Of a stretch of 64,000 bases of DNA, positions 1-21,332 are shown piece after piece. This stretch comes from an uncultured Lachnospiraceae bacterium (GTDB lineage: Bacteria; Bacillota; Clostridia; Lachnospirales; Lachnospiraceae). Position numbers and translations under genes: made by a program. Numbering within the stretch: position 1 is the first letter of the stretch; each line of letters starts with the position of its first letter. Location of the stretch: positions 1 through 64,000 of the forward strand of contig CACXEU010000039.1 of the NCBI GenBank assembly GCA_902766735.1. Reading direction: 5' to 3'. The notes under the pieces are model-generated. The model had not been told where the DNA came from. It saw only the letters and a list, made by a program, of their open reading frames with translations, and ran no database searches.

Positions 1-469
1 ATATCGTGAAGACCCATATAGAATTGTGAACTTCAAAAAAGATTCCGATGGAAATCTTGTATGTCCCAACGGCAGACGTTTCATATTTAAATATAGCCGG
101 CATGTCAAAAGAAATAAGTATGGACGAACCGAAGAAATCTATGAATGTGAAGATTGTACAGGTTGTCTTTATCGTGAAGCATGTTACAAGAAAAAAGAAG
201 GTAACAGAACCGCAAGATTAAACAAAGAATTAACGTCCATGCATGAAGAAGTGATTGAGAATCTTGAATCTATTCATGGAGCTCTGCTTCGCATGAACAG
301 AAGTATACAATCCGAGGGAACTTTTGGTATTATCAAATAAGACAGATCATACAAAAGACTATTCAGAAGAGGTTTAGAAAACGTAAATTTAGAGCTAACC
401 TTGATTGCCTGTGCTTTTAACCTTTATAAATACCATAATAAACGAAATCAATTAAAGCTGATTGCATGA
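1..469 (+). pseudogene. IS1182-like transposase, C-terminal part, interrupted by a stop codon
   Basis: The reading frame is open from the window edge, so the gene begins upstream. It shows a Cys-rich stretch (CEDCTGC, then C at YREAC) and a Ser-Ile-Gln-x-Glu-Gly-x-Phe-Gly block typical of the C-terminal DDE region of IS1182-type transposases. The frame stops at TAA (338-340) directly after GTFGIIK. The same frame then continues for 42 codons (DRSYKRLFRRG... to NKRNQLKLIA) up to TGA at 467-469. The continuation matches the expected family C-terminus, where a Gln usually follows the Lys, so a single CAA to TAA change would explain the stop. The copy is probably inactive. The exact insertion-sequence end was not identified. 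Confidence 0.8.
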
Positions 470-642: not shown

Positions 643-3366
643 TTATTTTACAAGTAAATCATCCCAGTTATAATCCAGTTCTACATAAGACGGATTTACC
701 ACCTTAAGGATGTTGTTATACAGATAATCATGGGATGTTAGATTTGACATCATTCTTCCCTGATATAACTGATTTGCCATTTCGTAAACACTCTTCTTCG
801 AAATATCACTATAAGAATATGTACCGTCTGTATATTTTATATATGCTCTCACACAAATTTTTGAAGAATAGAATTTCGCATTCTTTATAAACTTCATAAC
901 CAATGCATAGCTTTGCTTGGTACTGGTATTAAATCCTACGTTTACTTTTCCCTCATCAGCAGCTTTGTAGCTGTAAACACTGCTATTGCTACTGTTTACA
1001 ACCATTTCGTTATCGCTACAGTAGTCGTCTAATCCATATACCAATCCTGCTTCTGCCACTTCACTCTTTGGATCAGACACAGTATAGATGGTTCTGAAAC
1101 CTTCTAAGGTTGTGCTGATCTGGAATCCATTAACCACAGTAGTTGCTGCATGCTGATTTACTATTTCAGTAGTTGGCTCCTCTGTTGTAGATTCTTCTGT
1201 TGTCTTTTCTTCTGTCGTCGGTTCCGGTGTGTCATTATTTCCAGGATCATCATTCTGTTCTGTAATAAAGGAACGGTTCAAACGATTTATTTCTTCATTT
1301 ACTTCGCTTGCCATGGACATGCCATTGACTTTGAAATTCTTCAGGCCGGAAGTACAACTCTTCATCATTCCAGTAAACTCAACGGTTTCTCCCGGTCCCA
1401 TTCCAACATTAGATGTTATAATTACTTCCGTGAAGTCACCGTTTTCCACATCTCTTGTCGTAGCGGTTCCACCCCAGCAGGAAGTAAATGTGCTGGATTT
1501 TGGTAACCAGAAACTAAAGGTAAATCCTGATGGAAGAGAAACACTACTGTTATTCTTCACTTTAATGCTGTAAGTATTATTTGGATGATCATACTTACTT
1601 GCACTGGTATCAACGCTGAAGTCAAGCACATCATTGTTGTAATCAATATCTGAGGTTACCTGAGAAGGTCCAGCCTGCTTAAATGCGTTATATAACTTTG
1701 TTGTTAAAGTATCACCGATGACATACTCACCCTTTGCTGCATCGTAATCATAATCACCATGCATTACCCAAATCAATACACCACCAAGATTTTTATTCTT
1801 TACAAAATTGATTCTTTCCTGAATAGATTCTTCATCTTCAAAAGTAAGGAAGGTGTTGTTTGTAGCATTCCAGATATGTGGAACCTTACCAACACTATCC
1901 CAGTAACGTTTGTAGTTTCCGTTTTTCTTCATGACATTCATAACATGCCACAATGGGTTTGCTCCCGCTGCCACTTCCTTACCATTAGCATCTAAGTCAC
2001 ACCATAAGTTTAAGTTATCTGTAGCATTGGTCAGTGGGGAACCGGAAGAACCATGAAGTCCTGTGGTACCACCGGATACATTAGTCCATCCTCTTGTATA
2101 ATACGGAACACCCATCAGAATCTTTTCTGATTGAACTCTACCTCGATAGAATTTATAGGACCAGTCAAAACCTAATGTCTTTACAGCCTGAGTTAATGTT
2201 TCTCCGTCTGCATCATCCGGATAAAGGTTTGCCTGATTTTCAACATAATTGTTCCAACCACCATGGTAGTCGTAAGACATGATAGATACAAAATCAAGAT
2301 AATCCAGGAAGGAAGAATCCTTCTGTCCACCAAGTACCCAGGAAGAGGCGGAAACTGCTGAAGTTAACCAGTAATACTTTCCGTCTTCTTTTGCTGCTTT
2401 CGCTAAATCTTCACTTAAGATTTTAATGAACTGTGCATATCTTGTTGCAATTCCCGGTCTGATAGATTCTGTAAATGATGTATAGTTACCGGACTGCGGT
2501 GTTTCTGATGGGAATTCGAAGTCAATATCGATTCCATCAAATCCATACTGTCTGATAAATCTTACAGCGGAAGCACTGAACTTTCTCATGGATGCTTCAT
2601 TCTGTGTCGCATACCAGAGACCTTCAGAGGCTCCCCATCCACCGGTGGAAATTAATACGGTTACATTCGGATGCATCTTCTTTAAAGTATGCATTAAGTT
2701 AAACTGTCCGTAATAACCAAGGGATTCATCCATCTTGATTTCCACACCGTCATGGTAGAATTTACGATCTGTGAATCGATTGTTAATATCATTTTCAACA
2801 TCTCCTGCTTCTAACTCACATGTATTCTTATTAACAACACCAAAGGCGTACTGTACATGCGTTAACACGTCCCACTGTAAATCAGCAATGCTGAAATGTT
2901 CATGGGCATCGGAGTTAATTGCGTAATTTGGAAAATATCCAACCACTTTTTTATTGTAGTATGTTGCAGGAAGTTTTACCCCCTGAATATTTGTTCCAAC
3001 AACCGGATTTAAGGTTGCTTTATCTACACCGTTCTGATTAGAAGTTGTCGGATTTTCCGGATTCTGATTATTTCCGGATGTGGTTGGTTCAGATGCAGTA
3101 GAAATTAATTTCCACTCTCCACTGGCAACACCATCGGCCGGGATTTTTCCCTGACTCCACCACTGTGCTTCATAAACATTCCCCTGGTACATTGCCTGAT
3201 CACCTTTTAAATAAACAGTAGAACTGTTCCATTCTGCCACTGCCTCCACGGAAACAGATGAGAACGGTGTAACAACTCCTGCCATGGAAAGAGAAGAGGT
3301 TACCAATGTCACTGCCAGACATGTTACCAAAACTTTTTTTGCTTTACTCCAAATTTTTTTTCTCAT
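643..3366 (-). CDS. Secreted GH18 chitinase-like glycosidase with CBM5/12 and shared C-terminal domain
   Basis: This 907-residue protein begins with a Lys-rich signal peptide (about 1-43). A CBM5/12-type chitin-binding module follows (about 45-88, with VYLKGDQAMY and EAQWWSQG), then a Pro/Thr/Asn linker. The GH18 barrel spans about 138-600. Its active-site motif FDGIDIDFE places D277, D280, D282 and the catalytic acid E284, and SYDYHGGW lies near 364-371. An Ig/CBM-like beta domain of unclear family (about 605-705), a TTEE-rich linker and a C-terminal domain (746-907) complete it. That last domain recurs in the divergent GH43 neighbour. GH18 enzymes cleave chitin or related beta-1,4-GlcNAc chains; the real substrate is inferred. 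An AAGGAG site lies 7 bases before the ATG. No LPxTG anchor or S-layer motif was seen. Confidence 0.9.
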   Translation of the reverse strand: MRKKIWSKAKKVLVTCLAVTLVTSSLSMAGVVTPFSSVSVEAVAEWNSSTVYLKGDQAMYQGNVYEAQWWSQGKIPADGVASGEWKLISTASEPTTSGNNQNPENPTTSNQNGVDKATLNPVVGTNIQGVKLPATYYNKKVVGYFPNYAINSDAHEHFSIADLQWDVLTHVQYAFGVVNKNTCELEAGDVENDINNRFTDRKFYHDGVEIKMDESLGYYGQFNLMHTLKKMHPNVTVLISTGGWGASEGLWYATQNEASMRKFSASAVRFIRQYGFDGIDIDFEFPSETPQSGNYTSFTESIRPGIATRYAQFIKILSEDLAKAAKEDGKYYWLTSAVSASSWVLGGQKDSSFLDYLDFVSIMSYDYHGGWNNYVENQANLYPDDADGETLTQAVKTLGFDWSYKFYRGRVQSEKILMGVPYYTRGWTNVSGGTTGLHGSSGSPLTNATDNLNLWCDLDANGKEVAAGANPLWHVMNVMKKNGNYKRYWDSVGKVPHIWNATNNTFLTFEDEESIQERINFVKNKNLGGVLIWVMHGDYDYDAAKGEYVIGDTLTTKLYNAFKQAGPSQVTSDIDYNNDVLDFSVDTSASKYDHPNNTYSIKVKNNSSVSLPSGFTFSFWLPKSSTFTSCWGGTATTRDVENGDFTEVIITSNVGMGPGETVEFTGMMKSCTSGLKNFKVNGMSMASEVNEEINRLNRSFITEQNDDPGNNDTPEPTTEEKTTEESTTEEPTTEIVNQHAATTVVNGFQISTTLEGFRTIYTVSDPKSEVAEAGLVYGLDDYCSDNEMVVNSSNSSVYSYKAADEGKVNVGFNTSTKQSYALVMKFIKNAKFYSSKICVRAYIKYTDGTYSYSDISKKSVYEMANQLYQGRMMSNLTSHDYLYNNILKVVNPSYVELDYNWDDLLVK

Positions 3367-3412
3367 TTTAACGCTCCTTGCACTTTTCTAAAAAATGTTC
3401 TCTCAGTGAAAT

Positions 3413-3441
3413 ATTCTAACCTACTTATTTATAAGCGTAAA
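3413..3441 (-). promoter_or_regulatory. Promoter of the GH18 gene
   Basis: On the minus strand TTTACG (3441-3436) is separated by 17 bases from TAGAAT (3418-3413), about 45 bases upstream of the start codon. The word AACCGTTT at 3439-3446 overlaps the -35 box. It recurs at 3529-3536 in the same divergent region and may be a regulator site. Confidence 0.5.
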
Positions 3442-3572
3442 CCGTTTCTGAAAAAACACACCCTATTTTGAAATTCCATTCAATTCTTGTCTCTTTTTGG
3501 GATTTCAGACAATTTTTTTCAAATTTGGAACCGTTTTATAAAAAAAAGATACCTTTTTCAGAAATCTAAGCA

Positions 3573-3601
3573 TTGTTTGAAACATTTTTATTTCTTACGA
3601 T
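3573..3601 (+). promoter_or_regulatory. Promoter of the GH43 gene
   Basis: TTGTTT (3573-3578), a 17-base spacer and TACGAT (3596-3601) lie 33 bases upstream of the TTG start. The -10 box matches consensus at four of six positions. Confidence 0.4.
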
Positions 3602-3634
3602 GTAAAAAACGTATTATTTAAGGAGGAAAAAGTT

Positions 3635-6600
3635 TTGAAATCTCGTTTCAAACGCATACTTTGTATTGCTCTGACACTTGCCCTTCCGCTTACCCAGTTC
3701 TATCCGGGTTCGGGAACAAAGCAAATCTCAGGAGCAACCAGTATGACCATTAACGAAAATGCAATTTATCGTATTGTAAACAAAGCAACAGGAAAGGTTA
3801 TTGATGTAGATAACGCAGGAACAGAAAACGGAACCCTGCTCCAGTCTTACACCAGTAACGGAACAGTTGCTCAGCAGTTCAAATTCATCCCGTCTGTTAA
3901 TTCTGGCTACTACTGCATCATTCCAATGTGTGCAAAAACCAAGGCCTTCGATGACCCATCCTATTCCAAGGAATCCGGGAAAGTTCATCAGATTTACCAA
4001 CAGAATGGTGAAGGTGCTCAGGATTACCAGATTACCGACGCAGGAAACGGATATGTTCGAATCATCAGTAAGCCAAGTGGCTTTGCCCTGACCGATGACG
4101 GAAAGATTAAACAGTACGCCGTGGCCAATGATGATCGTCAGCTTTGGAAACTGGAAGTGGTTCGTTCCACAACCTGCTTTACCAATCCGATTCGCCAGGA
4201 CGGTGCAGATCCATGGGTCTTTAAAGCTGGAAATTCTTACTACTACTGTCAGTCTAGTGGTGGTGTGGCATTATATAAAATGAACGACCTGACCCAGTTA
4301 GGTATTTCCCAGTATCATAATATTTTCCAGAATGATTACACCGGTTCAGAAACATTAAGTTCCTATTGGGCTCCGGAATGTATTTACTTACGAGGACGTT
4401 GGTATTCCTACTTTGCTCCGGAAGTCAATCGTGCCGGCAATGACAGCCACCGTACTTATGTCTTGGAAGGTGGAACCAATCCCAATGATCCATTGGATGG
4501 AAGCTACACCTTAAAGGGACGTTTAGCAGATAGTACCAATAAGTGGTCCATTGACACCACTGCTTTCGAATATAATGGAAAACTCTATGCCGTATGGTCC
4601 GGATGGGAAGGGGACACCAATGTAGCCCAGAACATTTACATTGCAGAAATGAGCAATCCATGGACCATCTCATCAAACCGTGTTTGTATTTCCAGACCGA
4701 CCTACAGCTGGGAAACCAATACCAACCCACAGGTTAATGAAGGTCCGGAAGTTTTAATTAAGAACGGTAAGGTACATATTATTTATTCTGCCAGTGGAAG
4801 CTGGACTGACTCCTATTGTTTAGCTCGTCTGACCTGCACCAACGGAGATTTCATGAATCCAAACGCATGGTCCAAAGGAAGCGAGCCGGTATTCCAGCAA
4901 ACCTCCACGGTTCACGGTGTAGGACATGCATCCTTTACCAAATCACCGGATGGTACGGAAGACTGGATTGTATACCATGCTGCAAAACGTTCCGGCGGTG
5001 GATGGGATCGAGATATTCATATGCAGCTCTTTACTTGGCATGATGATTATCCATTTTTCGGGACACCTGTTTCCAATGATGTGGAGTTGGGAAGACCTTC
5101 GAAATCATCCGCTTCTCCGGTGAATGAGAATCACTACTATGTCATTAAGAACGTTGCAACCGGACGTTGTCTGGATATTCCAAACGGAGAAGATAAGAAT
5201 AGTCTTCAGTTACAGACATGGTCCATCAACAATTCCAATGCACAGCAGTTCAAATTTACAAAGAAATCCACTGGTTGGTTTACTATGTCACCGAAGTGTG
5301 CTCCCGGAAGAGGATTAGATAATCCTGTTGGTTCTACCGGCACAGGGGTACAGTATCAGACTTGGGAATTAAATAATAACAAGGCTCAGAACTTCCGATT
5401 AGAGCAAGTTGCTGACGGAACCTATCGAATCATCAATCAGGCAAGTTTATATGCTTTAACCGATAATGGTGAAGGTGCCGGTTATAAGGTTACACAGGAA
5501 GCTTTAACTAATAACAATAATCAGCGTTGGGAATTAATTGACCGCACTGCCATTGAAGAAGCTACCACTCAGGCACCGACCACAACTCAGGCACCAACGA
5601 CTGCAGAACCGACCACCGTATCCGATGGCTACACTACCGGAACTGCAGGAGCCTGGAGTAATACCGGAAAATGGGGATTCTATTACGGTGCATGGGCACC
5701 TGCAGAGGCATCCTATAAAACAGGTACCTCTCCTGCGTTTTCCGTAAAAGTAAAACAGAACACACTTGGCACAGCCTGGTTACTTCAGGCCAGCTACACT
5801 ACAGATGTCATTCCTGGCCACACCTACAAGGTAACTGCCAATATCACAACAGATAAAAATTCCTCCATCGGAATGAAAGAAGAATTATCCAATACAACGG
5901 GCAGTCCGGCATACACAAATCTTTCTGCCGGCGCAGCAACCAATTTGGTTGGTACTTATCGGGTTACAACGGATCAGATTAAAGTCATGTTTGAACTTGG
6001 AACCGGTGTGGAATCCGGAACTATTGTAAACTTTAATTCCATTCGATTAGAAGATGTCACTCCGATTGAAACAACTACCGCAGAGCCGACAACGAAAGAA
6101 CCAACGACTGCAGAACCGACTACTGAGGAACCAACCACAGAATCACCGATTCAGGTAGTAGCATCTGGTTTAGAGGTCGACGGCTATCAGATTAGTCCAA
6201 CATTGCAGGGATTCCGTACCGTATATTCCGTGGAGCCGAAAATAAACGGAAAAGACGTTCAGGAAATCGGATTAGTTTATGGCTTAACTGATTATATCGA
6301 TGCAAACGACTTATATGTTCGTGAGGATCATCCATATGTTAAACATTATGCATCAAGCACAAACTTGTCTGAGGTCTACGGAAGCACTCCGAAAAAGACC
6401 CGCCATTCCATGACAATGCTCTTCTCCCGCTTCAATGCGAAAGAGTTTTCTATCGGAATGACCGTTCGTGCCTATGCAAAATTAAGCGACGGAACTTATG
6501 TTTATACTGATCGATACGACTACACAATTTTCCGTGTTGCAGAGGTATTATATACGGGCAATTACTTTGGAAATGCCGACGCACATAATTACCTATATAA

Positions 6601-6673
6601 CCGAATTCTGAAGGTGGTAAATCCAGGGTATCAGGAAAACCCATTTAACTACCAAAACACAATAGTAAACTAA
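3635..6673 (+). CDS. Secreted multidomain GH43 glycosidase with two ricin-type (CBM13) modules
   Basis: The 1012-residue product starts at TTG, supported by AAGGAGG at 3620-3626. In order it has a signal peptide (about 1-34), a ricin-B-like module (about 40-175), a GH43 five-bladed propeller (about 183-490), a second ricin-B-like module (about 505-635), a TTQAP linker, a beta-sandwich resembling CBM4/9-type modules (about 660-805), a TTAEPTT linker and a C-terminal domain (849-1012) shared with the GH18 protein. The GH43 residues are visible: base D192 in GADPW, modulator D307 in WSIDTT and acid E369 in NEGPE. GH43 enzymes act on arabinan, xylan or galactan side chains; the substrate cannot be read here. 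It is probably released to the surface to attack plant or host glycans. Confidence 0.88.
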   Translation: MKSRFKRILCIALTLALPLTQFYPGSGTKQISGATSMTINENAIYRIVNKATGKVIDVDNAGTENGTLLQSYTSNGTVAQQFKFIPSVNSGYYCIIPMCAKTKAFDDPSYSKESGKVHQIYQQNGEGAQDYQITDAGNGYVRIISKPSGFALTDDGKIKQYAVANDDRQLWKLEVVRSTTCFTNPIRQDGADPWVFKAGNSYYYCQSSGGVALYKMNDLTQLGISQYHNIFQNDYTGSETLSSYWAPECIYLRGRWYSYFAPEVNRAGNDSHRTYVLEGGTNPNDPLDGSYTLKGRLADSTNKWSIDTTAFEYNGKLYAVWSGWEGDTNVAQNIYIAEMSNPWTISSNRVCISRPTYSWETNTNPQVNEGPEVLIKNGKVHIIYSASGSWTDSYCLARLTCTNGDFMNPNAWSKGSEPVFQQTSTVHGVGHASFTKSPDGTEDWIVYHAAKRSGGGWDRDIHMQLFTWHDDYPFFGTPVSNDVELGRPSKSSASPVNENHYYVIKNVATGRCLDIPNGEDKNSLQLQTWSINNSNAQQFKFTKKSTGWFTMSPKCAPGRGLDNPVGSTGTGVQYQTWELNNNKAQNFRLEQVADGTYRIINQASLYALTDNGEGAGYKVTQEALTNNNNQRWELIDRTAIEEATTQAPTTTQAPTTAEPTTVSDGYTTGTAGAWSNTGKWGFYYGAWAPAEASYKTGTSPAFSVKVKQNTLGTAWLLQASYTTDVIPGHTYKVTANITTDKNSSIGMKEELSNTTGSPAYTNLSAGAATNLVGTYRVTTDQIKVMFELGTGVESGTIVNFNSIRLEDVTPIETTTAEPTTKEPTTAEPTTEEPTTESPIQVVASGLEVDGYQISPTLQGFRTVYSVEPKINGKDVQEIGLVYGLTDYIDANDLYVREDHPYVKHYASSTNLSEVYGSTPKKTRHSMTMLFSRFNAKEFSIGMTVRAYAKLSDGTYVYTDRYDYTIFRVAEVLYTGNYFGNADAHNYLYNRILKVVNPGYQENPFNYQNTIVN

Positions 6674-9533: not shown

Positions 9534-12344
9534 CTATTTTTTCAATTGAATCACTGCTGCTTTTGAAACATAAGATGGCTGAACAATCGGGTTATATAAA
9601 TAGCCTCTGCGGTAACCGCTCATGATTTCTTCAAAGAATCCCGGACATTCCAATACCATGGAAATCACATTGTCTCCAATCGGATTCAGATAAGAATCCG
9701 GAATATAGAATTCTTCCTGAGGACCAATGATATCGTACTGAGCAACCGGCTTTCCATTCACATAAATGAGAAGTCTTTCATCTGCCTTGATTGGAATCAT
9801 CTGAAGTGGTGCAGAAATACCTTCTGCAGGATTATAACGGAAGTGGCGTCTGAACCATACCACATGTCCCATTTCTTTTCCGACTACCAATTTTTCCACA
9901 TCCGGAGCTACCTGCCAGCTATCATCACTATATTCCAAAGTCTGGAATCCCTGATGATAACCGCTGAGCTGATAGCGAACCTTGAAGGACTCTAATACCA
10001 CATCCAGCTTCATTCCATTCTGATAATTACCTTTAATGAAAATCGGATTCATAATTCCACTCATCTTCACTAATGCGCCTTCATGAGGATGAGATTTATT
10101 ATGGAACTCATTGGCATATAAGATTGCTATGGTATTCGTTCCCTTTTTCAATGCTGCCGTCACATTATGTCGGTCAATAGACTTATTTCTGGCACGGAAT
10201 ACCAATTCCCCATTAATGTATAACAAATAGCGGTCTGTATCATTGTGGTCAAAATATAAATAACCGTCCTGAATATCATCCTCTAATTCAAACTTGGTGC
10301 GATACCAATAATATCCATGCTGGAAGAAATCCTCTTCTTCTAAAGAAGTCGGCTTCGGAAGAACCTTCCAGGAGTCATCTGCAAAGTCCTCTGTGATTTC
10401 CTCACTATCTGCCTGATATTTCCAATTCGATGTCCACTGCACAGAAGGGTGATTTACGAACTGTGCTGTTTCAAAGGAAACTTCCTGAAGTCCGCAGTTA
10501 CAAGACTGTACCTGTAAATCTTCTTTATCCAGGAATGCATCCTTAAGTCCTGCACCTTCCTTCATTGGATAGAACTGAATAAAATTCTTTGTATTTTCCT
10601 TATACTGGATATTCAAAGAAACTGTTTTCTCGTCTTCTTCCATCGATTCCACATAGTAAAGATTATGGAACAATAATCCGTCCTTAAGGAAGTCCACACG
10701 GCCAATCATGGCATCCTCTAAAATGAAGAAGCGAACATCCTTCGCCCTCACGATAACCATATCCCCATGCTCATAAGTCACAAGGCTGGTTCCGTTTCCG
10801 GCATCATATTTCTTTGCATTTCCACAAATGATTTCCACATCCTTTGCATCCACATTAAGGCAAAGTTCTCCTGCCATACCATGGCTTCCATACATTACTA
10901 CCGCTGTCTCTTTTTCATATTTTTCTGTCATCCAGATTTCTGATGTGGAAAAATTAAGTTTCACATGGGTTTCCGGAATCTTGAATGCAATTGGAAACAT
11001 TCGTGTCTGATTTGCCTGAACTGTCGTCTTAAAAAGGTATTCCCTGTCGTTTAATTCTGCCGGGACCCTTACAGTAATTGTCTTATCTGATTCTTCCACG
11101 TTACGAACAAAGAAGAATCTTCCCTGATCATTTCCTTCCTGGTAGGTTGTGAAATTCTCATAAGCCTGGTCAATGGACTTGTCCAAAAAGGCATTATCCT
11201 TATTCAGAACTGCAATATTTTCTCCACCGGAAACAATTTCCATATAAGATTTCCGGTCACTTTCGGAAATGATATGAGAGAACTGTTTTGCAAAGCGAAT
11301 GAAACCTTTAATCCAATAATATTTTTCCCGATGAACTTCTCCGGTTTCTCCGATCGGTGCGCCACCAAAATCATAGCTGGTGATGTTTCCGAATCCGCCG
11401 AGCGCCACGTCACCACGACCTCCGATGAACGGGAAGGTGGTTCCCCCCACCATCATATAGTAATTGACAATGGACGCTCCTGTAATAAAGACACTCTTGG
11501 AAACCCCTTCTACCACATCCACTTCCGGGATGTATGTAGGAGTTCCAATCTGTGAGAACCAGCCTGCCTGCAATTCCAAAATCATGATTGGTGCATCCGG
11601 CTGGGTTTCCTTAGAGCTTAATAACTTCTGCTCGAAACGTTCATATTCTGACATCCATAAGCCGGGAATATTTGGATAATACGTTCTGGTATCAATGATT
11701 CCCTTTCCACGTAAGAATTCTGCCTCGTTGGCAAACTTTGGAACATTGATTCCATATTCTTCCATAGAACCTTTCAGGAACATGAAATATTCAATGGCAT
11801 CTTCTAAGGAAATCGGTTCTTCCCCGTATTCCATCAGATGATCGTATTCATTTTCCACCTGAGCTGCAATAATGGTTCCACCATTGGTAATCAAGTGCGA
11901 ATTAATCTGCTCTGCCACGGAACGATACCAGTATTTACAAAGTTCCAGATACTTTTCATCTAACATACGAATTCTGAATTCTCCATTGGCCACCTTTTTA
12001 ATCAGCCAGTCCGGATGTCCACCGAAGTCCAATTCCGCACAAATATATGGACCCGGTTTAATGAGAACATAAAATCCATATTTTTCACAAAGAGTCAGGA
12101 AGCGATCTAAATCGTAATCGCCATCCCAACGCTGCTTTCCTTCCTCCGGTTCATGCATATTCCACGCAATGTATACCGAAATCAGATTCGCTCCTGTCGC
12201 CTTCATTTTCTGAAGACGATCTTCCCACATTGCTGCCGGAACACGGAAATAGTGGAATTCTCCACCAATTAGAAATTCATGCTTTCCATGAATAATAAAT
12301 CCGTTTTGATCGTAATCAATAATCTCTTTTAAATCAGTACTCAA
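9534..12344 (-). CDS. GH35 family enzyme (beta-galactosidase or beta-glucosyltransferase type)
   Basis: The 936-residue protein has a GH35 barrel in its first 350 residues, with GGEFHYFR near 27-34, PGPYICAE near 97-104, acid/base E166 in QVENEYD and likely nucleophile E257 in LELQAGW. Jelly-roll beta domains fill the C-terminal half. There is no signal peptide, so it is cytoplasmic and acts on imported sugar. The start is TTG with AAAGGAG 9 bases upstream. Most GH35 enzymes are beta-galactosidases. However, one GH35 protein from an Ignavibacterium beta-1,2-glucan cluster is reported to be a beta-1,2-glucosyltransferase, and the adjacent large GH94-like phosphorylase makes that alternative credible here. 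Confidence 0.87.
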   Translation of the reverse strand: MSTDLKEIIDYDQNGFIIHGKHEFLIGGEFHYFRVPAAMWEDRLQKMKATGANLISVYIAWNMHEPEEGKQRWDGDYDLDRFLTLCEKYGFYVLIKPGPYICAELDFGGHPDWLIKKVANGEFRIRMLDEKYLELCKYWYRSVAEQINSHLITNGGTIIAAQVENEYDHLMEYGEEPISLEDAIEYFMFLKGSMEEYGINVPKFANEAEFLRGKGIIDTRTYYPNIPGLWMSEYERFEQKLLSSKETQPDAPIMILELQAGWFSQIGTPTYIPEVDVVEGVSKSVFITGASIVNYYMMVGGTTFPFIGGRGDVALGGFGNITSYDFGGAPIGETGEVHREKYYWIKGFIRFAKQFSHIISESDRKSYMEIVSGGENIAVLNKDNAFLDKSIDQAYENFTTYQEGNDQGRFFFVRNVEESDKTITVRVPAELNDREYLFKTTVQANQTRMFPIAFKIPETHVKLNFSTSEIWMTEKYEKETAVVMYGSHGMAGELCLNVDAKDVEIICGNAKKYDAGNGTSLVTYEHGDMVIVRAKDVRFFILEDAMIGRVDFLKDGLLFHNLYYVESMEEDEKTVSLNIQYKENTKNFIQFYPMKEGAGLKDAFLDKEDLQVQSCNCGLQEVSFETAQFVNHPSVQWTSNWKYQADSEEITEDFADDSWKVLPKPTSLEEEDFFQHGYYWYRTKFELEDDIQDGYLYFDHNDTDRYLLYINGELVFRARNKSIDRHNVTAALKKGTNTIAILYANEFHNKSHPHEGALVKMSGIMNPIFIKGNYQNGMKLDVVLESFKVRYQLSGYHQGFQTLEYSDDSWQVAPDVEKLVVGKEMGHVVWFRRHFRYNPAEGISAPLQMIPIKADERLLIYVNGKPVAQYDIIGPQEEFYIPDSYLNPIGDNVISMVLECPGFFEEIMSGYRRGYLYNPIVQPSYVSKAAVIQLKK

Positions 12345-16399: not shown

Positions 16400-18052
16400 T
16401 CACCCCTCGCTTAATGGAATTTCTACAATTACTTTCGTTCCATGACCTAAACTGCTTTCGATTTCCAGTTTAAAATCTCCGTTATATCTTAAATCCAAAC
16501 GTTCTCGAACATTCTTAATAGCATAGCGTCCGATACGCTGATTTGCATAACTATCATTATCCGTATTCCAGATGGCTTCCACCTGTTCCTTCGTCATTCC
16601 GATTCCCGTATCCAAGACCTCAAAATGGATATAATCTCCCATCTGCTTTCCGATTACTTTCAAGGTACATGGTGTACTGATATTTTCCAATCCATGAACC
16701 ACAGCATTTTCCACAAATGGCTGAAGGATCAGTTTCGGAATCTTCACCTTCTTAATCTCTTCTTCCACTTCTATTTCATAATTCAGTCGCTTGGAAAAAC
16801 GCATCTTCTGAATCTGCAGATACTTTGAAATCAAATCCAGTTCATGGGATACAGCCACTTCGCTATTTCCTCGGTTCAGCACTAAGCGGAATAAATCCGA
16901 AAGTGCCATGATACTTTCTGCAATTTCATCATTGTCTGCTGCTGTAGCCTGCCAGTACAGGGAATCCAAAGTATTATATAAGAAATGTGGATTAATCTGT
17001 GCCTGCAGTGCCGTCAGTTCGCTTTCCCGTTCTTCCAATTTAATCAATGTGGTAACAAACTTTGAAATAATCAGGAAAACCGGCAATAATCCTACCAGCA
17101 TTCCCACCAGTAAGGAAATCGGCATATACGCCACATCTAGCATTCTCGTCTGTTTACTGTACTTCGGTACTACCTTACAGATAATACTTGCATTGGAATC
17201 AGACTGTTTACAAATCACTTCATAATCCTGATATGTGAAATGAGAATCGCGCTTACGATAGTTCTTCTTCATAAACTCGTCTGCTTTCAGATAAGCTTCC
17301 ACCTTCGCATCCAATTTTCCCGCACGACACAATTCCCCACTGTTCTGATCCAAGACAATGACACCTTCATTTTTCTCTTTCAGTGCACTCTCACATAAGT
17401 CTTTAAATTGTTTCTGGTTTGCACCGATTACGATATAACCAATCACTTTCTTTTGACGAAGATCATATATTTTTCGATACAAACCAATTTTGTTCTTTCT
17501 ATTCGTATGATAAGTATTTCCGGAACCCTTTGGGACAAATTCCCAAAGCATTCCGTTTTTACTTTTCATGGTTTCTTTATAAGTTTCGGTCTTATGAACT
17601 TTTTTTACGCTTGAAACATAAGCACTTCCATCCATGCATCGAAGATAGGGGCGAACACCATTTTCCGGATAAATCGCCATTGTCTGTATATCCCCTTTTA
17701 ATGCCATCATTTCCTGAATCATCTGCATTGGTGCTTCGTCATACCAGAGTCTGGCATTCTCATTTTTTTCCTTTGGATTGTCTGCAGTCAAAAGTGCCTT
17801 TACTTGATCGTTAATACAGATATAGGTGGAAAAATTTTCCATATCCGCCTGAAGCAACTGAATGCTGTCGGCTAACGCATTCACACTTACCAGGTCATTA
17901 TTTAGTTTTTCTTCCTGTACCTTGTCGTAATTTTCCAGCAAAAGAATTACACAAACCACTGCAATCATCGGAGTGATAAACATATAGCCATATAAAATCA
18001 GTTTCTTCTTAATGCTTAATCTGGTAACCCCTTGTTTCAAACCCTTAATCAT
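16400..18052 (-). CDS. YesM-type sensor histidine kinase
   Basis: The 550-residue protein has two membrane helices (about 18-40 and 306-330) flanking an extracytoplasmic sensor of roughly 260 residues. Next come a short linker, a His_kinase domain with QINPHFLYNT (H355 phospho-acceptor) and a HATPase with PFVENAVVHGLE, DTGIGM and GHGTKV. No clear HAMP domain is visible; the linker after the second helix is short. In this family the sensor perceives sugars directly or through the binding protein. Here it sits between the importer and the catabolic genes. An AAGGA site is close to the ATG, 6 bases after the permease stop. Confidence 0.93.
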   Translation of the reverse strand: MIKGLKQGVTRLSIKKKLILYGYMFITPMIAVVCVILLLENYDKVQEEKLNNDLVSVNALADSIQLLQADMENFSTYICINDQVKALLTADNPKEKNENARLWYDEAPMQMIQEMMALKGDIQTMAIYPENGVRPYLRCMDGSAYVSSVKKVHKTETYKETMKSKNGMLWEFVPKGSGNTYHTNRKNKIGLYRKIYDLRQKKVIGYIVIGANQKQFKDLCESALKEKNEGVIVLDQNSGELCRAGKLDAKVEAYLKADEFMKKNYRKRDSHFTYQDYEVICKQSDSNASIICKVVPKYSKQTRMLDVAYMPISLLVGMLVGLLPVFLIISKFVTTLIKLEERESELTALQAQINPHFLYNTLDSLYWQATAADNDEIAESIMALSDLFRLVLNRGNSEVAVSHELDLISKYLQIQKMRFSKRLNYEIEVEEEIKKVKIPKLILQPFVENAVVHGLENISTPCTLKVIGKQMGDYIHFEVLDTGIGMTKEQVEAIWNTDNDSYANQRIGRYAIKNVRERLDLRYNGDFKLEIESSLGHGTKVIVEIPLSEG

Positions 18053-18058
18053 AATTCC

Positions 18059-18898
18059 TTATCCTTTAACTGCACCCATTGCTACACCCTTAGTAATGTG
18101 CTTATTTAAAATAATATACACAATAATTGCAGGAGCTGCGGTAAGGGTCATTACGGCAAACTGGATTGCATAATTCGAGGAGTACTGTCCTGTAAAGTCC
18201 AGGATAGAGAATGGCAAGGTCTTCCATGTGTCAGAACTTAAGTAAATTCTTGCCATCATAAATTCATTCCAGTTATTTAAGAATGTCATAATGGATACCG
18301 TAGCAATGGATGTTTTTAACATCGGTGTAATTACCTGGAAGATAATTCGGTAAATACCACAACCGTCAATGACTGCTGCTTCTTCCAATTCAATCGGAAT
18401 CGACTCAATAAAACTGGTCATCAGGAACAATCCCTGCGGCAATGAGAACGCCACGTAAGGAATCAGTAATGCCCACATCGTGTCAGTCAATCCCAGTTCC
18501 GTATAAATCTTGTAGTTTGGAAGTAATGTGGCATGAATCGGAATCATCATTCCCATCAATAAGAGGGTCTTAACAAATCCACTAAGTCTCCATCTCATTC
18601 GACGGCAGGCAAAACCAGCCATGATAGAAACAATAATTACCAACACTACTGCCAAAAAATTTATCAAAATACTATTCTTCAAATATAGTAAGAAATGTCC
18701 GTCTGTAAATGCCTTCGCATAATTTCCCCACTGGATTTTCTTTGGAATAATCAATAATCCGCTGGTAAACATTTCCGTACTGCTTGCCAATGAGAAATCC
18801 AACAACCAGACTAATGGGAAAATCTGAATTACGGCAATGATAATTAATATTAACCATAAAAAGGGTTTCGTAAATTTCTTCTTTTTCTTCTTATTCAT
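18059..18898 (-). CDS. CUT1 sugar ABC transporter permease (MalG/UgpE-like)
   Basis: This 279-residue membrane protein has about six helices and the cytoplasmic EAA loop (EEAAVIDGCGIYRIIF... TPMLK) that contacts the ATPase. The short Lys-rich N-terminus followed by a helix and C-terminal end at VKG are typical of the MalG-like partner. The start codon follows the stop of the preceding permease immediately (TAA then ATG). AAGGAGG lies 9 bases upstream. No ATPase gene is in the operon, so a shared MsmX-type ATPase elsewhere is presumed. Confidence 0.93.
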   Translation of the reverse strand: MNKKKKKKFTKPFLWLILIIIAVIQIFPLVWLLDFSLASSTEMFTSGLLIIPKKIQWGNYAKAFTDGHFLLYLKNSILINFLAVVLVIIVSIMAGFACRRMRWRLSGFVKTLLLMGMMIPIHATLLPNYKIYTELGLTDTMWALLIPYVAFSLPQGLFLMTSFIESIPIELEEAAVIDGCGIYRIIFQVITPMLKTSIATVSIMTFLNNWNEFMMARIYLSSDTWKTLPFSILDFTGQYSSNYAIQFAVMTLTAAPAIIVYIILNKHITKGVAMGAVKG

Positions 18899-19825
18899 TT
18901 ATGCAACCCTCCTTACTTTTTTTCTATTCTTCTGTTCCAGTTTACGAAGTTTTACTTCATCACGGTCTTCGAATACCTTATTTAAAGCAACCGTTGTAAT
19001 CAAACAGATAATAATGAAGATGACACCAATGGCATTACCATATCCATACTTATATGCGGTAAATCCCTGCTGATATAAATAGTTGGCTGCAAACTGAGTA
19101 CTATTTCCAGGGCCACCCTGTGTCAACAGATAAACGGTTTCCATCTGCTTCAATGCTGAGATAACAGCCATGGTGACATTTACCTGAATGACCGGTTTCA
19201 TCAATGGTAATGTTACATGAATAAATGCCTGTCTCTGGCTTGCTCCATCAATCGCCGCTGCTTCATAAAGAACCGGATCAATGTTCTTGATTCCCGTGTA
19301 ATAAATTAACATACCCCATCCAAATCCATGCCAGATTAAAACAAGAAGCACAGACCATATGGCTTTGTCTTCATCCAACCAGTTAATATTTCCTGATCCC
19401 CCAAACGCCTTAATAATGTTATTGAGCAAACCAAAACTTGGATTATAAATAAAGCTCCAAAGTTTTGCGATTACTGCGATAGAAATAACATTCGGTATAA
19501 AGTAAACACATCTGAAAAAGCTTTCTGCCTTTCCTCCCAATTTATCCAATACTGCTGCGACAATCATTGCAATCGGATGCTGAATACAGATAAAACCAAT
19601 TGCTAATAACAGCGAGTTTCTAAGCGACACCATGAAGACTTCATCGTGAAGCAAATTCTTGTAATTCTCCCAACCAATCATATTAAAGTTTCCCATACCG
19701 GTGTAATCGGTGAATCCATAGTAAACACTTAAGCAGATTGGAGCAAGAATCGCAAATATAAACAATAATAATCCCGGTAATATGAGGCTTAAAATAACCA
19801 ACTTATTACTATATAACTTTTTCAT
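18899..19825 (-). CDS. CUT1 sugar ABC transporter permease (MalF/UgpA-like)
   Basis: This 308-residue membrane protein has about six helices and an EAA loop (YEAAAIDGASQRQAF... TLPLMKP). It ends in a basic tail. It pairs with the following permease to form the membrane channel of an oligosaccharide importer. The start is supported by AAGGAG 6 bases upstream. It lies 65 bases after the binding-protein gene, with a GC-rich hairpin between them. Confidence 0.93.
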   Translation of the reverse strand: MKKLYSNKLVILSLILPGLLLFIFAILAPICLSVYYGFTDYTGMGNFNMIGWENYKNLLHDEVFMVSLRNSLLLAIGFICIQHPIAMIVAAVLDKLGGKAESFFRCVYFIPNVISIAVIAKLWSFIYNPSFGLLNNIIKAFGGSGNINWLDEDKAIWSVLLVLIWHGFGWGMLIYYTGIKNIDPVLYEAAAIDGASQRQAFIHVTLPLMKPVIQVNVTMAVISALKQMETVYLLTQGGPGNSTQFAANYLYQQGFTAYKYGYGNAIGVIFIIICLITTVALNKVFEDRDEVKLRKLEQKNRKKVRRVA

Positions 19826-19841
19826 CTTTAACTCCTTATAA

Positions 19842-19869
19842 AAATAGGCCGCCGAAATATCCGGCGGCC
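19842..19869 (-). terminator. Intercistronic hairpin, probable partial terminator or mRNA stabiliser
   Basis: On the minus strand GGCCGCCG (19869-19862) pairs perfectly with CGGCGGCC (19854-19847) around a 7-base loop and is followed by TATTTTTA. Its position just after the binding-protein stop is classic for setting binding protein expression above that of the permeases. Confidence 0.65.
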
Positions 19870-19890
19870 CAATGTTTCTTTCATCGTTAA

Positions 19891-21207
19891 TTATTTACAA
19901 GCCCCGCCAAGTGCTGAAAGAAAATCATCTACACTCTTACTTCCATTACAAACACTCTGAATTTCACTTTCAATCGTTGTCTTAAATGCTGATGTTCCTA
20001 AGTCGTTAATTGGTGTTCCTGAAAGATTTGTTGAGTTACTTAAAATTTCTACAATCTGCTTCTGAAGTTCTGTTTCATCACCTGTCATGTATGAGCTCTG
20101 ATCCTGTGCTGAAAGTCCAACACCGTTTTCCCATCCAAGCTTAGAAAGCTTTTCTGGCTGATACATGTAGTTTAAGAACTTAATTGCTTCTTCCTTAACT
20201 TCTGAGTTAGCGCTTACTGCATATCCACCACCGTTCCAAGCTGAGATGTCAGTAGCTGTAGCTTTTCCACCTTCAACAGTTGGCATTGTGAATACTCTGA
20301 TGTTTGTACGGATATCTTCTGCAATATCTTCATTAACAGCCATAGATGTTTCCCAACTTCCCATGTAGAACATTGCTGCCTGTCCGTTTGTGAATAAGTT
20401 CATAGCTGCGCCGTAATCCTGAGTATCGTAACCCTTCTGGAAAAGGTTAGCATCTGCAGCATCCTTTAATAACTGAGCTGCCTTCTTCATTTCATCAGAA
20501 CTGAAATCACCTGATTCCATTGCCTTGCTAACTGTGTCTAAGTAATCTGTTCCTGTAATCTTGAAAAGAACATCTGCTAAGTAGCAGCAAAGTGGCCATC
20601 CGTCTCCACCATCCATTGCTACCGGAACGATACCTTTTTCATTGATTTTCTTTCCTAATTCTAATAATTCATCATAAGTCTTAGGTACTTCCCAACCATT
20701 ATCTTCGAACATTTTCTGGTTGTAATAGAATACGCCGATATCTGTGTTTCTTGGAAGACCATATAACTTACCATCATATGTATATCCGCTCAATGATCCT
20801 TCAACGAACTGATAATCTTTGTAATCATCCTGATTTAATTCAGCAAGTACTCCTGCTTCAACTACTTCATCAAGGAATGCCGGCTGTCCCCAGATACTAA
20901 CGACATCTGGCATACCTGACATGGAATAAGCTTTAAATTTCGTCTTATAAGCTTCTTCATCCAATGCTTCCACTTCAATCGTAACGTTTGGATTTTCTTT
21001 TTCGTATTCATCAATGATAGTCTGTTCTACAAGTCCCTGTCCATTCTTACGATCTGTTAAGTTTGAAAATAACTTAATGGTTACTTTTCCGTCTGCTGAC
21101 TTTCCGCCACCAGCCTTCTTTGTGTCACTGTTTCCACATCCAACAGCCATTGTTGCGACCATGGCAACGGATAAAGCAATTGATGCAAATTTGTTAAACT
21201 TTCTCAT
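19891..21207 (-). CDS. Sugar-binding lipoprotein of the ABC importer (SBP family 1)
   Basis: The frame is open from 21315, but the ATG at 21207 is the start because AAGGAGG lies 6 bases upstream and a lipoprotein signal begins there. The 438-residue product has lipobox MAVGC (lipidated C24), a Gly/Lys spacer and a family 1 solute-binding fold (SMSGMPDVVSIWG, ARNTDIGVFYYNQK-type segment, GQAAMFYMGSW, WNGGGYAV). It would capture an oligosaccharide outside the membrane and deliver it to the two permeases. It is the first gene of the nine-gene operon. Confidence 0.93.
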   Translation of the reverse strand: MRKFNKFASIALSVAMVATMAVGCGNSDTKKAGGGKSADGKVTIKLFSNLTDRKNGQGLVEQTIIDEYEKENPNVTIEVEALDEEAYKTKFKAYSMSGMPDVVSIWGQPAFLDEVVEAGVLAELNQDDYKDYQFVEGSLSGYTYDGKLYGLPRNTDIGVFYYNQKMFEDNGWEVPKTYDELLELGKKINEKGIVPVAMDGGDGWPLCCYLADVLFKITGTDYLDTVSKAMESGDFSSDEMKKAAQLLKDAADANLFQKGYDTQDYGAAMNLFTNGQAAMFYMGSWETSMAVNEDIAEDIRTNIRVFTMPTVEGGKATATDISAWNGGGYAVSANSEVKEEAIKFLNYMYQPEKLSKLGWENGVGLSAQDQSSYMTGDETELQKQIVEILSNSTNLSGTPINDLGTSAFKTTIESEIQSVCNGSKSVDDFLSALGGACK

Positions 21208-21332
21208 TTTTTTCCTCCTTATTCGTTCAACATTTTTTTCTTGTTGTCTGAATTTTATCATTGAGTTTCGTCTCTTAACAGATAGTAATCTTACGAAAAG
21301 GTGGAAAATTTTCATATGAATTTCTACTTCAG
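21208..21332 (-). other. 5' leader of the sugar-utilisation operon
   Basis: This stretch lies between the predicted -10 box and the binding-protein start. The frame of the binding protein stays open through it, but the region lacks a signal-peptide-like sequence and the internal RBS at 21214-21220 argues that it is untranslated leader. No riboswitch fold was recognised. Confidence 0.4.

What the first reader, a model, noticed from the sequence alone, without database searches (positions are those of the whole stretch)
643..6673. Two divergent secreted glycosidases share an unassigned C-terminal domain
The GH18 protein (746-907) and the GH43 protein (849-1012) end in a domain with common blocks: G-[FY]-QIS-x-TL-x-GFRT-x-Y, GLVYGL-x-DY, VRAY-x-K-x-x-DGTY, and [DN]YLYN-x-ILKVVNP-x-Y. 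The catalytic parts are unrelated, so the tail is a mobile module. Neither protein has an LPxTG or S-layer anchor, so the tail may fix enzymes to the cell wall or to a polysaccharide.
Basis: partly seen in the sequence, partly recalled or inferred. Interest (0 to 1): 0.6.

Follow-up and report, generated by a model that had tools for sequence, protein, structure and literature searches.

The report
Shared tail on many secreted enzymes
Some rumen bacteria put the same previously undescribed, folded end-domain on dozens of unrelated secreted proteins, many of them enzymes that could break fungal cell walls, and it most likely works as an interchangeable attachment tag that holds those proteins at a surface.

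Summary
The GH18 and GH43 tails are homologous (42% identity, E 5e-39). No convincing Pfam, NCBIfam or PDB-sequence match exists. The window's genome carries 35 copies on 35 proteins: 33 at the C-terminus, 2 just after the signal peptide. A genome of another genus carries 58. The domain is rare: 21 of 23 genomes of the genus, 2 of 299 sampled genomes of the family (strong matches), 1 of 398 of the phylum. AlphaFold gives an Ig/FN3-like sandwich plus a helical hairpin (pLDDT 91.6). Hosts are chitinases, beta-1,3- and alpha-1,3-glucanases, an alpha-mannanase, peptidases, CotH and LRR proteins: largely an arsenal suited to fungal walls. In relatives without the tail the slot holds choline-binding repeats or a lysine-rich FN3. 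Between genera, tails seldom follow their hosts (5 of 29) and group by genome. Best reading: an exchangeable, lineage-specific attachment module, probably to the producer's own surface. The ligand is untested.

The parts
643..3366 (-). Secreted GH18 chitinase gene (907 aa), CBM5/12 near its N-terminus, tail at its C-terminus
3118..3234 (-). CBM5/12 (residues 45-83), a module of a known carbohydrate-binding family
1753..2949 (-). GH18 catalytic domain (residues 140-538)
1132..1233 (-). Thr/Glu/Pro-rich linker before the tail (TTEEPTTE type)
646..1131 (-). Tail domain of the GH18 protein (P0003, 162 aa; profile match 658-1131)
790..1143 (-). Ig/FN3-like beta-sandwich part of the tail (model residues 8-125)
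697..789 (-). C-terminal helical hairpin with the HxYLYxxILKVVNP motif (model residues 126-156)
3635..6673 (+). Secreted GH43 protein gene (1012 aa, TTG start) with flanking ricin-like modules, tail at its C-terminus
4178..5047 (+). GH43 catalytic domain (residues 182-471)
5123..5530 (+). Ricin-type lectin module (residues 497-632)
6077..6169 (+). Thr/Glu/Pro-rich linker before the tail
6179..6670 (+). Tail domain of the GH43 protein (profile match 6179-6658)

Best explanation
The tail is a folded, non-catalytic attachment module: an Ig/FN3-like sandwich capped by a helical hairpin, often joined through a flexible Thr/Glu/Pro linker. Secreted proteins of this rumen Lachnospiraceae lineage carry it so that they are held at one surface, most likely the producer's own envelope, through a lineage-specific wall component or receptor. 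Shown: homology, copy number, position, signal peptides, host set, rarity, predicted fold, the slot being filled by other (in one case known wall-binding) modules in relatives, and clustering of tails by genome. Inferred: that it binds anything, and that the target is the producer's surface and not the prey's.
For: 35 copies in one genome and 58 in another. Hosts span about a dozen unrelated catalytic families, peptidases, CotH and LRR proteins, so the tail is not tied to one substrate; several hosts already carry their own CBM5/12, CBM6, CBM26 or ricin module. Signal-peptide-like N-terminus in 30 of 31 own-genome hosts and 55 of 56 G297 hosts whose 5' end lay inside the stretch. It stands N-terminally, right after the signal peptide, in 2 of 35 (G000) and 4 of 53 (G297) tails and in tandem once, so it is a folded module and not a cleaved C-terminal signal. 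Swap 1: the multi-GH18 chitinase ends in the tail in G305, G306 and G307 and in a lysine-rich FN3 in G282 and G311 of the same genus. Swap 2: the three nearest tail-less GH43 homologues end in choline-binding wall repeats (G133, PF19127 E 2.2e-40), a lysine-rich FN3 (G179) or lysine-rich sequence with a Big_2 domain (G011). A tail's best match is the orthologous host's tail in 5 of 29, an own-genome paralogue in 18 and another G297 tail in 6, against 20 of 30 orthologous for other modules of the same hosts (Fisher p 1.8e-4); the tail tree needs 14 genome changes against 26.7 for shuffled labels (0 of 500), as expected if all tails of a genome answer to one lineage-specific partner.
Against: No ligand, receptor or localisation was shown. 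Median tail pI is 6.1 (G000) and 5.1 (G297), so it is not a simple basic wall tether. The lysine-rich FN3 is in 23 of 23 genomes of the genus at 18-46 copies and does not fall as tails rise (rho -0.06), so the tail has not replaced it genome-wide. Among near species tails do follow hosts (19 of 19), so the between-genera pattern could come from fast divergence plus domain swapping. CBM6 alone as control is not significantly different (4 of 9, p 0.17). No scaffold-like repeat protein was seen in 424 kb of own-genome stretches, but the rest of the genome was not read.
Confidence: 0.5

Rival explanations
1. Target-side binding: the tail is a new carbohydrate-binding module that sticks enzymes to fungal (or other microbial) walls, delivering the whole arsenal to one prey surface.
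For: The host set is rich in enzymes for fungal-wall polymers: GH18 x5, GH81 x2, GH16 x2, alpha-1,3-glucanase-type x2, GH76, GH128-type x2 = 14 of 35 hosts (supported). Tail number rises with GH18 number over 11 genomes (rho 0.91; genomes related, so not independent). CBM56 and CBM21 are among the structural neighbours. Tail-less GH18-type paralogues of the same genome have ricin-like modules in that slot.
Against: Also on GH115, an amylase, S8 and M64 peptidases, LRR and CotH proteins. Many hosts already have their own CBM. A fixed external ligand does not predict genome-wise clustering of tails. The structural similarity is generic (Z about 8; no Foldseek E under 0.001).
Confidence: 0.25
2. 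Dockerin-like plug: the tail docks on a repeated receptor of a scaffold protein, building a multi-enzyme complex of a new type.
For: Copy number, host diversity including peptidases, and genome-wise clustering resemble dockerin repertoires; R. flavefaciens has 222 dockerin proteins, some with peptidases (PMC2930009, abstract and section list seen). One host has two tails in tandem.
Against: No dockerin match. No scaffold candidate in the stretches held. The whole genome was not searched for a repeated partner.
Confidence: 0.13
3. Passive structural cap: the domain aids folding, secretion or protease resistance of large secreted proteins and binds nothing.
For: Distant Ig-like relatives occur at the ends of other secreted enzymes, such as a 455-aa GH16 with the sandwich only. 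The most conserved residues include strand and helix positions that could be core packing.
Against: The hairpin motif is conserved in nearly all tails (H, L, Y, I, L, Y positions in 76-82 of 85-87). The slot is filled by wall-binding repeats in a relative. It is confined to one lineage at very high copy.
Confidence: 0.1

Closest known systems
Fibronectin-III / Ig-like beta-sandwich domains
   Same: Residues 4-127 of the model align at Z 8 to 9.5 with FN3 and other sandwiches; some weak profile hits are Ig-like stretches of other secreted proteins of the family.
   Different: No Pfam FN3 or Ig match in any of 33 members at E up to 1 except one single weak Ig_GpJ_C hit; an extra C-terminal helical hairpin with its own conserved motif.
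Lysine-rich C-terminal FN3 of the same genus
   Same: Occupies the same end slot in related chitinases; shares an FN3-type 'VRAY' strand.
   Different: Strongly basic and in 23 of 23 genomes; the tail is near neutral or acidic and has the hairpin.
Choline-binding / cell-wall-binding repeats (PF01473, PF19127)
   Same: Terminal array on the nearest tail-less GH43 homologue (G133).
   Different: Short repeats; no sequence relation to the tail.
Dockerin of cellulosomes
   Same: One small module on many secreted enzymes of one genome, mostly terminal.
   Different: No dockerin match; a cohesin partner was not tested.

Membership tests
Dockerin | Two Ca-binding repeats, profile match (PF00404) | tested here: not met
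   No dockerin match in 33 tails at E<=1 nor in hosts at E<=1e-5
Dockerin | Cohesin-bearing scaffold in the genome | not tested
   No cohesin search was run; one search read only 424 kb of 2.4 Mb and found no repeated scaffold
Sortase (LPXTG) substrate | LPxTG-like motif, hydrophobic stretch and basic end at the C-terminus | tested here: not met
   0 of 92 hosts have a hydrophobic stretch in the last 60 aa, 1 of 91 an LPxTG-like string; sortases exist in the genome (5 matches)
C-terminal sorting signal (type IX CTD kind) | Must lie at the C-terminus | tested here: not met
   N-terminal copies: 2 of 35 and 4 of 53 tails
S-layer homology (SLH) domain | SLH profile match | tested here: not met
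   No match in the Pfam scan of 33 tails
Known carbohydrate-binding module families | Profile match to a CBM family over the tail | tested here: not met
Known carbohydrate-binding module families | Binding to a glycan | not testable with these tools
   needs protein
FN3/Ig-like fold | Sandwich fold | tested here: met
   pLDDT 91.6, Z 8-9.5 over 4-127
FN3/Ig-like fold | Sequence-family membership (Pfam fn3) | tested here: not met
   No fn3 hit at E<=1 in 33 members

The most novel reading that the evidence does not exclude
A rumen Lachnospiraceae lineage has evolved its own surface-display code: a new domain that plugs 35 to 58 secreted proteins, many for chitin, beta- and alpha-glucan and mannan, into a lineage-specific surface receptor, making a cell-bound machine for eating fungi, a fungal-wall counterpart of the cellulosome.
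Probability: 0.15. Interest if true: 0.85.

Novelty: new variant of a known kind. Interest (0 to 1): 0.55.

Why it matters
It defines an unlisted domain family that marks a whole set of secreted proteins in a little-studied rumen lineage, so one binding experiment would bear on dozens of proteins at once. It also points to bacteria equipped against fungal walls in the rumen, where chitinase-bearing clostridia that lyse fungal walls have been reported (Kopecny work as cited in PMC7200989, passages read) but where I found no account of such an arsenal with a shared tag (searches; listings and abstract starts only).

Tried and rejected
Rejected: chance likeness of two genes (35 copies); a recent local duplication (tails lie at the outer ends of divergent genes and are only 42% identical); known CBM or catalytic family; LPXTG or type-IX-like signal; plasmid or phage carriage (no match in plasmids; none confirmed in viral contigs).

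Led nowhere or weakened the case: tail number does not trade off with the lysine-rich FN3. Within near species tails follow hosts in 19 of 19, in farther MAGs in 0 of 4, one of which had no core match. No scaffold candidate in 424 kb of own stretches. The Foldseek PDB list gave no match under E 0.001; the structural look covers residues 4-127, so the hairpin is barely tested and I do not claim a new fold. Of nine loci with weak profile hits outside the two genera, seven were found again locally: one is by eye a DNA polymerase I (L083), so chance, and three are cell-wall glucosaminidase-like, a label that I recall and took from no call. PDB searches gave no clear catalytic answer for host L136 and only the GH18 part for L119:2640. 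Paper searches for an earlier description found none.

Rows dropped: five G297 tails under 100 bits were left out, and two short tails were left out of the tree (85 of 87). One G000 host core under 100 aa was left out (34 of 35). In one search the 55 longer of 57 G297 hosts were scanned, with their tails cut off. The 33-row alignment A1 left out two of the 35 own copies (L015 and L021).

Full report
Observation. The genes diverge and their catalytic parts are unrelated (GH18 and GH43; nearest solved relatives). No Pfam hit covers the tails of the two full proteins; NCBIfam gives only hits far below cut-off; of 33 tails scanned against Pfam no family matched more than one, best E 0.0014. No PDB sequence matches (best E 0.75).

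Copy number and spread. One tail as query finds 35 copies in the window's genome; a 33-row profile finds 35 as well. In the genus, 21 of 23 genomes have at least one, from 1 to 41 each; four have 35 to 41, the other seventeen 1 to 13. Several low-copy genomes hold only relatives: a 437-455 aa GH16 protein with the sandwich but not the hairpin, or large proteins with an inner copy. In a sample of 299 genomes of the family only the window's genome and G297, of another genus, have strong matches; four more have weak ones. G297 has 58. In a sample of 295 of the order only weak hits appear besides the window's genome, and in 398 of the phylum only the window's genome. Named GTDB records with the domain are MAGs called Eubacterium sp. 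or Lachnospiraceae bacterium with RUG or RUI isolate names, which I recall as rumen sets; the window's genome itself is not named.

Architecture. Of 35 own-genome tails, 33 are at the C-terminus and 2 stand just behind the signal peptide; of 53 scored G297 tails 46 are C-terminal, 4 N-terminal and 3 internal, two of these in tandem on one protein. A signal-peptide-like start is seen in 30 of 31 own hosts and 55 of 56 G297 hosts with a 5' end inside the stretch (by a simple hydropathy rule). A Thr/Glu/Pro/Ser-rich linker (at least half of the 60 residues before the tail) precedes 11 of 33 and 11 of 46 C-terminal tails. No host has a membrane-type end.

Hosts. In the window's genome Pfam finds on tail hosts: GH18 (5 hosts), GH81 (2), GH16 (2), alpha-1,3-glucanase-type CatAgl (2), GH76 (1), Glyco_hydro_cc or GH128-type (2), GH5 (2, one also counted under GH18), GH43 (3), GH115 (1), CotH (2), S8 and M64 peptidases, a BspA-type LRR protein, an alpha-amylase, a pectate-lyase-like protein, DUF6273 and DUF4832; four hosts have no hit and three only binding modules or weak hits. 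Solved relatives support the chitinase, GH81, GH128-type and laminarinase calls. Fourteen of 35 hosts thus belong to families typical of fungal-wall polymers; the fungal target is my inference from those families. G297 hosts show the same mix (55 scanned). GH18 number and tail number rise together over 11 genomes (rho 0.91), but the genomes are related.

Structure. AlphaFold2 on 25 aligned sequences gives pLDDT 91.6, pTM 0.84: a row of strands, then two helices. Structural neighbours are common FN3-like sandwiches at Z 8 to 9.5 over residues 4-127; no Foldseek match is below E 0.001. The most conserved residues (87 tails) lie in the strands (G13, R24, G40, R106, Y108, Y118, model numbering) and in the hairpin and just after it (Y134, H145, L148, Y149, I152, Y160).

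What fills the slot elsewhere. The multi-GH18 chitinase of the genus ends in the tail in G305, G306 and G307 but in a lysine-rich FN3 in G282 and G311. The three nearest tail-less GH43 homologues end in choline-binding repeats (G133), a lysine-rich FN3 (G179) and lysine-rich sequence with a Big_2 domain (G011). Choline-binding repeats are established surface anchors (general knowledge); that the lysine-rich FN3 is an electrostatic wall tether is only inference. Both kinds of end occur in the window's genome: another large protein carries the lysine-rich FN3, and no protein in the held stretches carries both.

How tails evolve. Twenty-nine of 34 own host cores have a reciprocal-best partner among G297 hosts. 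The best match of the tail is the partner's tail in 5 of 29, an own-genome paralogue in 18, another G297 tail in 6; other modules of the same hosts match the partner in 20 of 30 (F5/8 8 of 12, CBM6 4 of 9, GH18 5 of 6, GH43 3 of 3; Fisher p 1.8e-4, CBM6 alone 0.17). By the stricter reciprocal rule the tail agrees in 3 of 29. The tail tree needs 14 changes of genome label against 26.7 in shuffles (quick method, many weak branches). Within near species tails follow hosts (19 of 19) and in several pairs diverge faster than the cores, for example 91% core against 60% tail. Tails therefore behave like parts that are exchanged or homogenised within a lineage and evolve fast, as modules with a shared lineage-specific partner would; relaxed constraint with swapping is not excluded.

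Judgement. The tail is a new family of, most likely, attachment modules. Own-surface binding is favoured (0.5) over prey binding (0.25), a dockerin-like plug (0.13) and a passive cap (0.1). No binding was measured, and the partner, if there is one, was not found.

Noticed in passing
window 2-340 (+): Fragment of a transposase (DDE_Tnp_1_6) at the contig edge beside the GH18 gene.
   Followed up: no
window 9534-12344 (-): A GH35 beta-galactosidase read as 936 aa from a TTG start; it carries no tail.
   Followed up: partly
window 21682-52179 (-): A long run of co-directional ORFs of 170-620 aa, perhaps a surface-polysaccharide (glycosyltransferase) cluster judging by size and arrangement; not annotated by any search.
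   Followed up: no
window 16400-21315 (-): Sensor histidine kinase with a Cache domain close to a solute-binding protein, likely a sugar uptake and sensing unit.
   Followed up: no
L207:9024-15128 (+), G000:C5: A further large secreted protein, GH81-like by eye (no family scan was run on it), ends in a lysine-rich FN3 and not in the tail; that FN3 type is in 23 of 23 genomes of the genus at 18-46 copies.
   Followed up: partly
L168, L170, L172, L173, L180, L181, L187: In low-copy members of the genus a 437-455 aa GH16 protein ends in the sandwich part alone, without the helical hairpin, perhaps an older form of the tail.
   Followed up: partly
L201:1023-5178 (-), G000:C30: Two adjacent, similar secreted proteins, one matched to GH18, end in crystallin-like and ricin-like sequence in place of the tail.
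   Followed up: partly
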